Below, piece by piece: positions 22,808 to 28,161 of a stretch of DNA of 64,000 bases. Every line of letters starts with the position of its first letter. The stretch's first letter is position 1. Made by a program: the position numbers and the translations under genes. The notes beneath the pieces are model-generated. The model made no database searches. It was not told the origin of the DNA and worked only from the letters and a program-made list of their open reading frames with translations. The stretch is from contig CACNZU010000001.1 in assembly GCA_902624885.1 (NCBI GenBank), positions 81,535 through 145,534 on the forward strand, given 5' to 3'. Source of the DNA: an uncultured Pelagibacteraceae bacterium (GTDB lineage Bacteria > Pseudomonadota > Alphaproteobacteria > Pelagibacterales > Pelagibacteraceae).

Positions 22808-23884
22808 ATGACAAAAAAGATTACATTTTTAGGAATTGAAACCAGTTGTGATGAAACTGCAGCATCTGTAATTAGAGAAAATGATAAGGGTACTGCAGAC
22901 ATTTTATCTAATATCGTCTCAAGTCAGATTTCAGAGCATAAAAAATTTGGAGGAGTGGTACCTGAAATAGCTGCTAGAGCGCATATAGAAAGTATTGAAT
23001 ATATAATCAAGGCTGCTTTAGAGGAAAGTAAAGTTTCTTTAAATGAAATAGACGGTATTGCAGCTACTGCGGGTCCAGGTTTAATTGTCTGTTTAACAGT
23101 TGGACTCAATATAGGTAAATCAATAGCTGCATTTTCAAACAAACCATTCGTTGCGGTTAATCATTTAGAAGGTCATGCTCTAAGTCCAGGACTAGAAAAT
23201 AATATTAAATTTCCTTATTTACTTTTATTAATTTCTGGAGGTCACTCTCAATTTTTAATTGTGAAAGATGTAAACAAATACGAGCAATTGGGTACCACAA
23301 TCGATGATGCTTTAGGTGAAGCTTTTGATAAAACTGCAAAAATGCTTAACCTAGGTTATCCAGGTGGGCCGAGTGTTGAAAAAGCTTCAAAACTGGGAGA
23401 TAAAAATTTTTTTTCACTTCCTGAACCAATAATAAATAAAGCAGGATGTAATTTGTCATTTGCTGGACTTAAAACTGCAGTTTTAAGGGAGTCAAAAAAA
23501 ATAATTGGAAATGATAAATTAAAATTTAATCTTGCAGCATCTTTTCAATATACCATAAATAAAATTCTTTATAAAAAAACAAAAATTGCGGTCGAAATGT
23601 TTAAAAAAAAAATTAATACGTCAAATATTAATTTAGTTGTAGCTGGAGGTGTAGCTGCAAATATTTCGATAAGAGAAAATTTAAAAAAACTTTCAGGAGA
23701 ATTAGGATTTAAAACTGTTTATCCTAATTTAAAATTGTGCGGTGATAATGCTGCTATGATTGCCTGGGCAGGTATAAAAAGATTTAAAAAAAATTTGTTA
23801 AATAATATAGATATTGAAGCTAAATCTCGATGGCCTTTGGATGAAAATGCTCCTTATATGAAGGGACCAGGTTTAAAGTTATAA
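22808..23884 (+). CDS. tsaD: tRNA N6-threonylcarbamoyladenosine transferase TsaD
   Basis: LGIETSCDETAASV; NHLEGHALSP; LLLISGGHSQ; CGDNAAMIAWAG. Confidence 0.97.
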   Translation: MTKKITFLGIETSCDETAASVIRENDKGTADILSNIVSSQISEHKKFGGVVPEIAARAHIESIEYIIKAALEESKVSLNEIDGIAATAGPGLIVCLTVGLNIGKSIAAFSNKPFVAVNHLEGHALSPGLENNIKFPYLLLLISGGHSQFLIVKDVNKYEQLGTTIDDALGEAFDKTAKMLNLGYPGGPSVEKASKLGDKNFFSLPEPIINKAGCNLSFAGLKTAVLRESKKIIGNDKLKFNLAASFQYTINKILYKKTKIAVEMFKKKINTSNINLVVAGGVAANISIRENLKKLSGELGFKTVYPNLKLCGDNAAMIAWAGIKRFKKNLLNNIDIEAKSRWPLDENAPYMKGPGLKL

Positions 23885-23903
23885 TGAAATATTGGTTACT
23901 TAA
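23884..23903 (+). repeat. Duplicated 5' start of the EVE gene (fossil start), left junction of island
   Basis: ATGAAATATTGGTTACTTAA versus ATGAAGTACTGGTTACTTAA at 27748-27767 (18/20 identical; both differences synonymous). Confidence 0.8.
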
Positions 23904-24004: not shown

Positions 24005-24029
24005 AATGTGGGGTACGTTGTGGGGTACG
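24005..24029 (+). repeat. 25-bp direct repeat, left copy (AATGTGGGGTACGTTGTGGGGTACG), containing two TGGGGTACG units
   Basis: 24/25 identical to 27651-27675. Confidence 0.92.
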
Positions 24030-24067: not shown

Positions 24068-26179
24068 ATGACTCAAACTTTAATAGAAAACTTATCAGAA
24101 TTTAAAACAAAAAATAAAAATAAAAAGAATATCAAATGTCTTGTTCCTGTTGATCTAAAAAACGACATAGAAGTACCAATTAAGGATTCTAGAGGCGAGT
24201 TTAATGAACAATTCTATAAATGGCAGTTTATAAATGCATTAATTGATTGTAAATATTTTAAAAAAAAACAAATCGGAACTGAAGTTTATTTTCCCAAGGG
24301 AAATACAAATAACTATTTAAAAGTTGATGCAGTTATTTTTGATGATGAAAATTGGTTTGAAACATATAAAAAATTTAGAAAAGAAAAAGATATATCTTCC
24401 TTAGATTTATTGCGAAAAAAGATTATATGTGCAATAGAATTTAAAAGACAAGATGGCAAAGATATTGAATGGTATTATTCTACACAACTAAAACCAGCCT
24501 TAAAGGAATCCGAAAGAGATTATTCTATAGGAATTATTTATGACAAAGAAAAGCTCTTTCTATTTAAAAAAAATAAAAATAATGTGATTAGATACAATCA
24601 TTCATTAAACTCCAAAGGTGATGAAAGTTCAACAAAAGAGATGAATTTGCATATACCAGATGCATTTAGATATATTCCAACTTTTAGAGAGCTTTTAGTT
24701 CAGGCTGGCATATCAAATATACCAAAAGATAAAAGGTCATTATCTGATTTATCTGAAGTTTCGGGTGCTCATTCAAAGTTTATTAATGATGCAATGTCAC
24801 AAATATTAAGAACTATGGACCAAAACTCACTAGCTGACACTAGAGGATATGAAATTTTAATACAGGCCATTGCTATGAAAATTTTGGATGAACGTAAATC
24901 AGAAAAAAAAAATAGCGAATTGGAATTTTTTATTTTGCCTGATGAAAGCGGTTTTAATTCAATAAATGATTCATCAATATCAAAATTTATAAAACGAATG
25001 AAAGGTCTCTATGCATTTGCAAAAGTGGAATATAAAAATTTTTTAAAAGGTAAAATAGAATTAAACTTTTCTGATAAAAGGCACATTAAATTGTTAGCCA
25101 AAATTGTGGAACAATTTCAAGATTTTTCATTTATAAAATCTTACAAAACTGACCTTTATCAAATAATTTTTTATAGATTTGCAAATGAATTTAAAAAAGA
25201 TGCAAAAGGACAGTTTATAACACCAATTCCATTAGTAAATTTTATTGTAAATATCGTTAATCCTAGGGGCAATGAAACTCTATGTGACCCTACAGTAGGA
25301 ATAGGTGATTTTTTAAGTAATGCATATGTTTCTTCCAAACCTAAGCTAAAAGACAATAACCTATTTGGAATTGATAATGACGATCAGATGGTAATGCTTG
25401 CACAATTAAATATGTTATTAAACGGTGATGGTAATGCAAACATTTTTTTTTATGATAGTCATGGAAGTATTAATTCTAAAATATCCGAAGATAATAAAAA
25501 GTTAACATTAAAACATCATCTACATAATAATGGAAATTGGGATAATTGGAATGATGATAGTTTAATCAAAAAGTTTGACGTAATTCTTACCAACCCGCCA
25601 TTTGGCGAAGATAGAAAATTTGAGCCTAAGACTACTAATGAAAAAAATATTGCAAAATTATACGAACTTTGGAACGTAGCAAGTTCTGGTAAGTCTATTG
25701 ATCCTGGCTTACTTCATCTTGAAAATTCTGTAAGACTACTTAACGAAAACGGAAGATTTGGAATTATTTTATCAAACTCTTTGGCATCAATTGATAAATG
25801 GCAAAAAGCAAGGGAGTGGCTAATGGAGAAAATTAGAATTGTTGCAATATTTGACTTACCAGCAAATGTCTTTGCAGATACAGGAGTAAATACTTCAGTC
25901 ATAATTGGTTACAAACCTTCAAAAAATGAATTGGATAAAATAAAAAAAGATAATTATGAAATTTTTTCTAGAGAAATTTTAGAAGTTGGTTATGAGGTTA
26001 AGACTTACAAAAGAGTAAAAACCTTTGTAAACAAGTATAAGTATTCTGAGTTAGATTTTGAAGTTAAAACCGATGAAAATGGCTCTCCTTTATTAATTGA
26101 AGATTTCACTAGCACAATCAAAGATTTTAAATATTGGGCATCTAAACAAGAAAAAAAACTTAAAGAAATTTTTATTTAA
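24068..26179 (+). CDS. Putative restriction-modification fusion: N-terminal PD-(D/E)xK-like domain plus N6-adenine DNA methyltransferase (Type IIG/IIB-like)
   Basis: D87 (VDAVIFDD) ... E124-F-K126 (CAIEFKRQ) in the N-terminal domain; FITPIPLVNFIV, CDPTVGIGDFL (SAM motif I) and TNPPFGED (motif IV) in the MTase domain. Confidence 0.82.
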   Translation: MTQTLIENLSEFKTKNKNKKNIKCLVPVDLKNDIEVPIKDSRGEFNEQFYKWQFINALIDCKYFKKKQIGTEVYFPKGNTNNYLKVDAVIFDDENWFETYKKFRKEKDISSLDLLRKKIICAIEFKRQDGKDIEWYYSTQLKPALKESERDYSIGIIYDKEKLFLFKKNKNNVIRYNHSLNSKGDESSTKEMNLHIPDAFRYIPTFRELLVQAGISNIPKDKRSLSDLSEVSGAHSKFINDAMSQILRTMDQNSLADTRGYEILIQAIAMKILDERKSEKKNSELEFFILPDESGFNSINDSSISKFIKRMKGLYAFAKVEYKNFLKGKIELNFSDKRHIKLLAKIVEQFQDFSFIKSYKTDLYQIIFYRFANEFKKDAKGQFITPIPLVNFIVNIVNPRGNETLCDPTVGIGDFLSNAYVSSKPKLKDNNLFGIDNDDQMVMLAQLNMLLNGDGNANIFFYDSHGSINSKISEDNKKLTLKHHLHNNGNWDNWNDDSLIKKFDVILTNPPFGEDRKFEPKTTNEKNIAKLYELWNVASSGKSIDPGLLHLENSVRLLNENGRFGIILSNSLASIDKWQKAREWLMEKIRIVAIFDLPANVFADTGVNTSVIIGYKPSKNELDKIKKDNYEIFSREILEVGYEVKTYKRVKTFVNKYKYSELDFEVKTDENGSPLLIEDFTSTIKDFKYWASKQEKKLKEIFI

Positions 26180-27645
26180 TGAATACATATATTAATTCTT
26201 ATATTTGTACCTATAAAGATATTATTAAAAATAAAAATTCACTTTCAGCTTCAACTTACCAAAAAATTAATATTAACTATAAAAAATTAAAAAAAATAAA
26301 AGATTATTTTTCTAGAGATTTAGACAACTCAGACAAAGGATTTGAGCCAGGGTCTATAAGCTATATTGGAAATTCAAAATATAAATTTGTAAGATCAAAA
26401 GCTTTGCAGAATAATCTTTTTATATGTGATATAAAAAAAAATACTTTTAAACCTATTCACCAAAAACATTTCAAAAAAAATAATTTTAAAATTAATGATG
26501 TTTTAATAACAAAAGACTCAAATGTTGGAGCATCTGGTATATTAAAAAATAGCACAAAAAATCTTTGTTTTTCAGGTGCTTTTTTGAGAGTCCCTTTAAA
26601 AAAAGAAGATAAGTTTTATGTATATTCTTTCTTGAAAAGTAAGTTTTATTTTGAACAATTAAAGTTTCTTATACCCAAAGGATCAACATTATCTCATGGA
26701 AAAGATATAATTTTTGAGGCACAAATACCTGATTTACATGTATCAGACCAAAGACGAGTTGATTTAGAATTTTTAATTAGATTAAGAACTCTCTATGAAC
26801 AAAGGGTGAAATTCAAATCTAAAATAATAAAAAAAATTATTAAGCACGAAATAGAAAATAATCAAAAACAAAAAAAATTTATTTTTAATTTTCCAAATTA
26901 TAAAGATATTTATTTGTCTAAAAGATTGGATAGCTCAACATATAGTTATGATTATAAAAAAAATAATTTTGAAATCATGAATTATAAATTTGGCTATAAT
27001 GATTTGAATTCCTATGGATATAGAGGTATTAGAGGTTCTTCTTTAGAAATTAATTCAATAAAAGTTCGACTAGACTCAGATGTTTACAAAAAAAACTTTT
27101 ATAAACTGGTAATACCAACAAATATCTCAGAATATTTTACTGTTACTGAAACTAATTATATAGGAACTCCAGTAAAATTAAAAACTATAAGAAAAGGTGA
27201 CATAATTTTTGGAGGAGAAGGATTTTCAAAAGGTAGAAGCTATGTGGTTTGTGACGATGAAGAAAATATTGCCACAAACTATCATGGAATTAGAATAGTT
27301 AATAACAAATCTGATTTGGATGATTCTATTTTTGTAAATTGTTTTTTAAGTTTCTGGAGAGATAAAGGAATGATTGATGCCATAGGCGTTGGAGGTTCAG
27401 GAGGACATTGCTCACCTGAATATTTTCATATGATATTAATTCCCAATTTTAAAGAAAACATAAAAAAAAAAATAAAAGAAATATATTTGAGTAATTCCGA
27501 AATTGATTTAAAAAAAATTAAAAAAAAATTTAAAGATTATTTTTTTAATTTGGGAATTTATGAATTAGACCTATTAATGCAAAAGATCGACCAGCTAATT
27601 AAGAAAAAACAAGATGAGATATTATTTAATAAAAAAATTAATTAA
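26179..27645 (+). CDS. Type I-like specificity (S/HsdS) subunit
   Basis: ATG overlaps the stop of the preceding gene; two half-repeats with TRD-like pattern (GSTLSHGKDIIFEAQIP ... GGSGGHCSPEYFHMILIPNF) each followed by Lys-rich coiled-coil-like segments. Confidence 0.78.
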   Translation: MNTYINSYICTYKDIIKNKNSLSASTYQKININYKKLKKIKDYFSRDLDNSDKGFEPGSISYIGNSKYKFVRSKALQNNLFICDIKKNTFKPIHQKHFKKNNFKINDVLITKDSNVGASGILKNSTKNLCFSGAFLRVPLKKEDKFYVYSFLKSKFYFEQLKFLIPKGSTLSHGKDIIFEAQIPDLHVSDQRRVDLEFLIRLRTLYEQRVKFKSKIIKKIIKHEIENNQKQKKFIFNFPNYKDIYLSKRLDSSTYSYDYKKNNFEIMNYKFGYNDLNSYGYRGIRGSSLEINSIKVRLDSDVYKKNFYKLVIPTNISEYFTVTETNYIGTPVKLKTIRKGDIIFGGEGFSKGRSYVVCDDEENIATNYHGIRIVNNKSDLDDSIFVNCFLSFWRDKGMIDAIGVGGSGGHCSPEYFHMILIPNFKENIKKKIKEIYLSNSEIDLKKIKKKFKDYFFNLGIYELDLLMQKIDQLIKKKQDEILFNKKIN

Positions 27646-27650
27646 TTTGT

Positions 27651-27675
27651 AATGTAGGGTACGTTGTGGGGTACG
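27651..27675 (+). repeat. 25-bp direct repeat, right copy (AATGTAGGGTACGTTGTGGGGTACG)
   Basis: 24/25 identical to 24005-24029. Confidence 0.92.
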
Positions 27676-27747: not shown

Positions 27748-28161
27748 ATGAAGTACTGGTTACTTAAGTCTGAGCCCGATGTTTGGTCGATTGATCAGCA
27801 AATAAAAGCTGGTGTAAAGGGTGCTGCCTGGGATGGAGTTAGAAATTATCAGGCTGCAAATAATTTGCGAAAAATGAAAAATGGCGATTTGTGTTTTTTT
27901 TATCATTCAAATATTGGAAAAGAAATTGTAGGTATAGTTAAGGTAATTAAATCAGCGTTTATCGATAAAACTGATAAGAAAAAGAGATTTGTGGCCGTTC
28001 AAGTTAGGTTTGTAAGTAAATTTAAAAAGGCTATTTCTTTGGAAAAAATTAAAAAAAACAAGAATATTTCTCATTTACCGTTGATAAAACAAAGTAGGTT
28101 GTCAGTAATGCCAATAGATTATAAAAGCTGGAAAATAATTTGTAACATGGGTAAAGTATAA
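27748..28161 (+). CDS. EVE domain-containing protein
   Basis: [17 protein letters not shown]...[31 protein letters not shown]. Confidence 0.95.

What the first reader, a model, noticed from the sequence alone, without database searches (positions are those of the whole stretch)
24068..27645. Compact two-gene R-M system: putative nuclease-methyltransferase fusion plus S subunit, no translocase
The 703-aa protein has an N-terminal region with PD-(D/E)xK-like residues (D87, E124-F-K126; candidate helix E44/E47) before a Type I-like N6-adenine MTase domain (DPTVGIGDFL, NPPF). The second gene is a two-TRD S subunit. There is no HsdR helicase/translocase in the window. This arrangement resembles Type IIB/IIG (BcgI-like) enzymes. 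SAR11-like genomes are generally considered poor in R-M systems, so a small self-contained one on a mobile cassette is notable.
Basis: partly seen in the sequence, partly recalled or inferred. Interest (0 to 1): 0.78.

Follow-up and report, generated by a model that had tools for sequence, protein, structure and literature searches.

The report
Two-gene Type IIB-like restriction system, SAR11
A marine SAR11-type bacterium carries a two-gene DNA-cutting and DNA-marking defence system, a far relative of the lab enzymes BsaXI and BcgI, on a 3.9 kb cassette that inserted into the start of a host gene and rebuilt it; the kind is known, but finding it in this host is unusual.

Summary
ORF 24068-26179 (703 aa) is a nuclease-methyltransferase fusion; ORF 26179-27645 (488 aa) is a two-TRD S subunit. 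A genome scan gave 59 related loci: a strict two-gene operon with no recurrent third gene, HsdR included. In 46 full-length relatives from about ten phyla, E47, E72, D87, E124, K126, Q140 and NPPF are invariant. AlphaFold gives the N-terminal domain a PD-(D/E)xK-like topology (pLDDT 94). BsaXI, a Type IIB enzyme, is the top PDB match by sequence profile, by full-length fold and (weakly) by the N-terminal domain alone. The two TRDs swap independently between relatives with over 90% identical M. A Type IIB-like (BcgI/BsaXI) system is well supported; cleavage and methylation are untested. In nearby SAR11 genomes tsaD directly abuts the EVE gene; here a 3.86 kb insert sits in the EVE 5' end, leaving a 20-nt remnant on the left and a restored gene on the right: a site-specific, integrase-less cassette. 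Among sampled family genomes 19/297 match Methylase_S and 12/297 match HsdR-N, so R-M is rare in SAR11 but not absent. New member of a known kind.

The parts
24068..26179 (+). RM subunit: fused PD-(D/E)xK nuclease and N6-adenine methyltransferase, 703 aa
24068..24715 (+). N-terminal nuclease domain (about residues 1-216), no Pfam family; invariant E47, E72, D87, E124, K126, Q140
24206..24487 (+). Candidate catalytic residues: E47 (24206-24208), E72 (24281-24283), D87 (24326-24328), E124 (24437-24439), K126 (24443-24445), Q140 (24485-24487)
   Evidence: 46 of 46 identical
24716..25147 (+). Helical connector domain (about residues 217-360)
   Evidence: secondary structure of the model; boundary approximate
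25148..25987 (+). Gamma-type N6-adenine methyltransferase domain: DPTVGIGDFL at 25286-25315, NPPF at 25592-25603
25988..26176 (+). C-terminal tail with two helices, the likely S-docking tail
   Evidence: analogy to the RM+S group in PMC11997821
26179..27645 (+). S (specificity) subunit, 488 aa, 1-nt overlap with the RM gene (TAATG)
26179..26736 (+). TRD1 (approximate)
26887..27462 (+). TRD2 (approximate)
23884..23903 (+). Left core repeat: orphaned first 20 nt of the EVE gene (ATGAAATATTGGTTACTTAA)
27748..27767 (+). Right core repeat: restored 5' end of the EVE gene, with two silent differences (ATGAAGTACTGGTTACTTAA)
24005..24029 (+). Left inner repeat AATGTGGGGTACGTTGTGGGGTACG (tandem GTGGGGTACG), possible recombinase arm site
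27651..27675 (+). Right inner repeat, 96% identical and in the same orientation

Best explanation
This is a self-contained Type IIB-like (BcgI/BsaXI kind, the multimeric branch of Type IIG) restriction-modification system. Two RM subunits assemble on one S subunit. The two TRDs of S read a bipartite DNA site. The methyltransferase domains put m6A on each half-site of host DNA. On unmodified incoming DNA, the N-terminal PD-(D/E)xK domains cut at a fixed distance from the site, most likely on both sides, without ATP or a translocase. The two genes came in on a 3.86 kb cassette by site-specific recombination into the first codons of the EVE gene; the cassette brought a replacement for those codons. 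Shown by computation: domain anatomy, invariant active sites, two-gene operon, TRD exchange, insertion boundaries. Inferred: stoichiometry, cleavage on both sides, methylation motif, anti-phage role, the recombinase used.
For: Of 58 related loci analysed, 55 have S downstream of M, mostly within 20 bases, and no recurrent third gene. E47/E72/D87/E124/K126/Q140 and NPPF are invariant in 46/46. AlphaFold pLDDT is 86 for the whole protein and 94 for the N-terminal domain, with helix-strand-strand-helix-strand-helix-strand topology carrying D87 on strand 83-91 and E124/K126 at the end of strand 119-125. Best PDB profile hit is RM.BsaXI (1.4e-22). The top three Foldseek hits of the full model are BsaXI (1.6e-21). 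The N-terminal domain alone finds BsaXI first, then Cas4-type nucleases. S matches HsdS over both TRDs. Relatives with 93-94% identical M have TRDs 22-46% identical, or one TRD shared and the other not (L023/L029: 93% and 42%). In close SAR11 genomes tsaD and EVE abut.
Against: No activity data. N-terminal Foldseek hits are individually weak (E 0.01-0.1), and no sequence family covers that domain. One-sided cutting, or methylation only, cannot be excluded from sequence. The 70% complete genome leaves room for an unseen hsdR.
Confidence: 0.85

Rival explanations
1. It is the M and S part of a classical Type I system whose hsdR lies in the missing part of the genome or has been lost.
For: The methyltransferase and S parts resemble HsdM and HsdS; the genome is 70% complete; other SAR11 genomes do carry hsdRMS operons.
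Against: M carries its own N-terminal domain with an invariant nuclease site; hsdR does not recur beside the pair in 58 loci; no HSDR_N in the held genome; best match is BsaXI, not HsdM.
Confidence: 0.05
2. It is a Type IIG-like enzyme that cuts on one side only, or whose nuclease domain gives another outcome (nicking, modification-dependent cutting).
For: Cut geometry cannot be read from sequence; the nuclease domain has no family match and is only weakly similar to solved folds.
Against: Separate S with two TRDs and a Type I-like methyltransferase is the organisation of the enzymes known to cut on both sides (BcgI, BaeI, BsaXI; PMC3874165; PMC11997821).
Confidence: 0.12
3. It is an epigenetic or regulatory methyltransferase pair whose nuclease domain is inactive.
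For: Most Pelagibacter methyltransferases studied have no partner nuclease (PMC9516812).
Against: The nuclease motif residues stay invariant at 42-53% protein identity, and TRDs change between close relatives, as expected for restriction rather than a fixed regulatory motif.
Confidence: 0.05
4. It is part of a MADS-like (MAD2/MAD5) multi-gene defence system.
For: NCBIfam MAD2 and MAD5 models hit M (152 bits) and S (50 bits).
Against: Both are far below the curated cut-offs (720 and 400 bits), and no other recurring genes are present here or in relatives.
Confidence: 0.01

Closest known systems
BsaXI (Type IIB, RM + S)
   Same: N-terminal PD-(D/E)xK nuclease, helical connector, gamma methyltransferase, separate S subunit; best PDB match by profile and fold
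   Different: BsaXI RM is about 916 aa with extra 'knob' and 'paddle' elements; this RM is 703 aa and only 16-18% identical in the structural alignment
BcgI (Type IIB archetype) and the RM+S group named with it (BveI, Hso63250II, HpyUM)
   Same: Same gene organisation; a Type I-like methyltransferase with a helical C-terminal tail is described for this group
Type I hsdRMS systems of SAR11 relatives
   Same: N6_Mtase and two-TRD S subunit
   Different: They carry a separate HsdR translocase and sit at other loci; this one has none
Integrative elements that insert into the 5' end of a gene and restore it (e.g. SXT/R391 in prfC; from memory)
   Same: Target-gene 5' end duplicated at the two junctions, gene restored
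   Different: Only 3.86 kb, no integrase or transfer gene inside

Membership tests
Type IIB (BcgI/BsaXI-like) R-M | Nuclease domain fused N-terminal to the methyltransferase, PD-(D/E)xK site | tested here: met
   (fold match weak by E-value, but nucleases on top)
Type IIB (BcgI/BsaXI-like) R-M | Gamma-type N6-adenine methyltransferase with NPPF | tested here: met
Type IIB (BcgI/BsaXI-like) R-M | S component with two TRDs | tested here: met
Type IIB (BcgI/BsaXI-like) R-M | No HsdR/translocase partner | tested here: met
   No recurrent third gene in relatives, none in the held 70% genome; activity itself not tested
Type IIB (BcgI/BsaXI-like) R-M | (RM)2S assembly | not testable with these tools
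   needs biochemistry or structure
Type IIB (BcgI/BsaXI-like) R-M | Cuts on both sides of a bipartite site | not testable with these tools
   needs cleavage assay
Type IIB (BcgI/BsaXI-like) R-M | m6A on both strands of the site | not testable with these tools
   needs methylome data
Type I R-M | Separate HsdR with helicase and nuclease | tested here: not met
MADS (MAD2/MAD5) | MAD2 and MAD5 models above cut-off, plus other mad genes | tested here: not met
Autonomous integrative element | Own integrase inside the element | tested here: not met
   No ORF other than M and S fills the cassette; the only tyrosine recombinase found in the genome is on another contig

The most novel reading that the evidence does not exclude
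The 3.86 kb unit is an active non-autonomous integrative cassette: core repeats plus paired inner repeats at both ends, moved by a recombinase acting in trans, that delivers a minimal stand-alone restriction system into streamlined SAR11 genomes while repairing the gene it lands in.
Probability: 0.3. Interest if true: 0.6.

Novelty: new member of a known kind. Interest (0 to 1): 0.45.

Why it matters
SAR11 is among the most abundant bacteria in the ocean and under constant phage attack, yet reported R-M systems are scarce; one survey states that none had been reported (PMC9516812). A two-gene, ATP-free system is about the cheapest restriction defence that fits a streamlined genome. The precise insertion into and repair of EVE suggests how such defences enter these genomes. 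The wider family (59 loci, about ten phyla, TRDs swapped freely) is a source of uncharacterised Type IIB-type enzymes with a nuclease domain that has no Pfam model.

Tried and rejected
Viral contigs held no relative. A candidate attP pattern hit 8 viral contigs, but all share one unrelated conserved stretch without tsaD, EVE, M or S: chance. The inner repeat GTRGGGTACGTTGTGGGGTACG was not found elsewhere in the own genome, in 297 family genomes or in viral contigs. Plasmid and phage searches gave only methyltransferase-domain hits at 22-29% identity. MADS membership rejected by cut-offs. EVE as a functional part of the system was rejected: EVE is next to tsaD in nearly all relatives without the cassette. 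Assembly chimera rejected: both junctions fall on the same 20-nt EVE sequence and both flanks are SAR11. Direct HsdR_N kinship of the nuclease domain is only suggestive (61% probability against one HsdR set, none against another). The promoter scan is no better than shuffles.

Full report
OBSERVATION. The RM gene ends in TAA and the S gene starts with the last A of it (TAATG), the same one-base overlap reported for EcoKI hsdM/hsdS (abstract of PMC3510504). The window lies in an 0.82 Mb, 31-contig, 70% complete assembly. A SAM-V riboswitch in it, absent from all 14 control genomes, together with about 30% GC, supports the SAR11 assignment; that SAM-V is typical of Pelagibacter is from my own knowledge.

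THE RM PROTEIN. Pfam and PDB see the methyltransferase. No Pfam family covers the first 216 residues, even over 46 members. A full-length relative in another family of the same class (42% identity) gave a seed alignment. The genome scan then returned 59 loci from Bacteroidota, Bacillota, Campylobacterota, Aquificota, Spirochaetota, Patescibacteria-type bacteria, Methanobacteriota and others. Over 46 full-length proteins, E47, E72, D87, E124, K126 and Q140 never change, nor does NPPF; E44 does. The tree does not follow host phyla, which fits horizontal transfer, and the window protein sits on the longest end branch (1.21), at most 53% identical to anything found.

FOLD. The full-length model (pLDDT 86) finds BsaXI in its top three places (E 1.6e-21 to 7e-19), then HsdM proteins and BpuSI. 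The A2 profile also has RM.BsaXI as best PDB sequence hit (1.4e-22). The separate N-terminal model (pLDDT 94) has the order helix 47-60, strand 69-76, strand 83-91 with D87, helices 96-118, strand 119-125 with E124/K126, helix 133-146, strand 152-159 in full-length numbering. Its best hits are BsaXI, two Cas4 nucleases and a TT1808-type fold, but with E of only 0.01 to 0.4. I read this as a divergent PD-(D/E)xK domain; topology and invariance carry more weight than those E-values. In BsaXI, E73, D90, E105 and K107 are needed for cutting (PMC11997821). E72, D87, E124 and K126 here are the plausible equivalents, but I could not align the two directly.

THE S PROTEIN. It is weakly recognised on its own (PADLOC Specificity_I 1.7e-11; 24 of 48 members match PF01420), but its profile aligns with Type I HsdS over both halves (97%). 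The two halves match each other (E 3.6e-5). Relatives with nearly the same RM differ sharply in one or both TRDs (L029/L034: RM 93%, TRD1 22%, TRD2 31%; L023/L029: TRD1 93%, TRD2 42%). That is the signature of swapped specificity modules.

NO TRANSLOCASE. S follows M in 55 of 58 loci, mostly within 20 bases. Gene clustering over the flanks (up to 8 kb each side) finds no third partner beyond a small HTH-like gene in six loci. HSDR_N is absent from the held genome.

THE CASSETTE. In most of the nearest genomes the tsaD stop codon overlaps the EVE start codon (TAATG). In the window, tsaD runs into ATGAAATATTGGTTACTTAA, the commonest EVE start among the relatives, and then into foreign sequence. 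3,864 bases on, EVE is whole again and begins ATGAAGTACTGGTTACTTAA, with two silent differences. A transposon target duplication would normally be perfect; two diverged copies suggest that the right copy came with the element, with crossover in the shared TGGTTACTTAA. Just inside both ends lies a 25-base direct repeat made of tandem GTGGGGTACG (96% identical), found nowhere else searched. It looks like recombinase arm sites, but this is inference. There is no integrase in the cassette; the one tyrosine recombinase found in the assembly is on another contig and has no such repeats.

SAR11 CONTEXT. PF01420 matches 19 of 297 and PF04313 matches 12 of 297 sampled family genomes. Of the eight regions opened, at least six hold hsdRMS-type operons at other sites. 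The RM protein itself was found in full only in the own genome among 397. PF01420 misses the window's S, so these rates are lower bounds. The statement that SAR11 has no reported R-M (PMC9516812) is therefore too strong, but this type is unusual there.

VERDICT. A well-supported new member of the Type IIB (RM+S) kind on a precise, integrase-less cassette. Cleavage, motif and mobility remain to be shown.

Noticed in passing
L110 893-3360 and L111 89-3813 (tsaD-EVE junction in two other genomes of the genus): Other cargo sits between tsaD and EVE: one 308-aa gene in L110, three genes in L111. The junction may be a recurrent insertion site.
   Followed up: partly
L132 6171-12073, L133 5812-11764, L135 8511-12195: Type I-like R-M genes lie next to groES/groEL in three genomes of two genera: a possible defence hot spot in SAR11.
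   Followed up: partly
L136 4955-8111 (-): A different compact pair in a SAR11-family genome: a 587-aa HSDR_N_2 plus N6_Mtase fusion and a 467-aa S protein, about 8 kb from the acs gene.
   Followed up: partly
L013, L014, L019, L052, L056, L060, upstream of M: A 104-111 aa helix-turn-helix-like gene precedes M in six loci, possibly a controller protein.
   Followed up: no
L020, L038, L052, L055, L056, L059 (M) and L026 (S): In several relatives the M or S reading frame is broken into pieces: decay, phase variation or sequencing error.
   Followed up: no
L115 1444-2397 (own genome, contig C15): The only tyrosine recombinase found in the assembly, 317 aa, beside an ogt-like gene and glycosyltransferase/FkbM-type genes; no GTGGGGTACG repeats near it.
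   Followed up: partly
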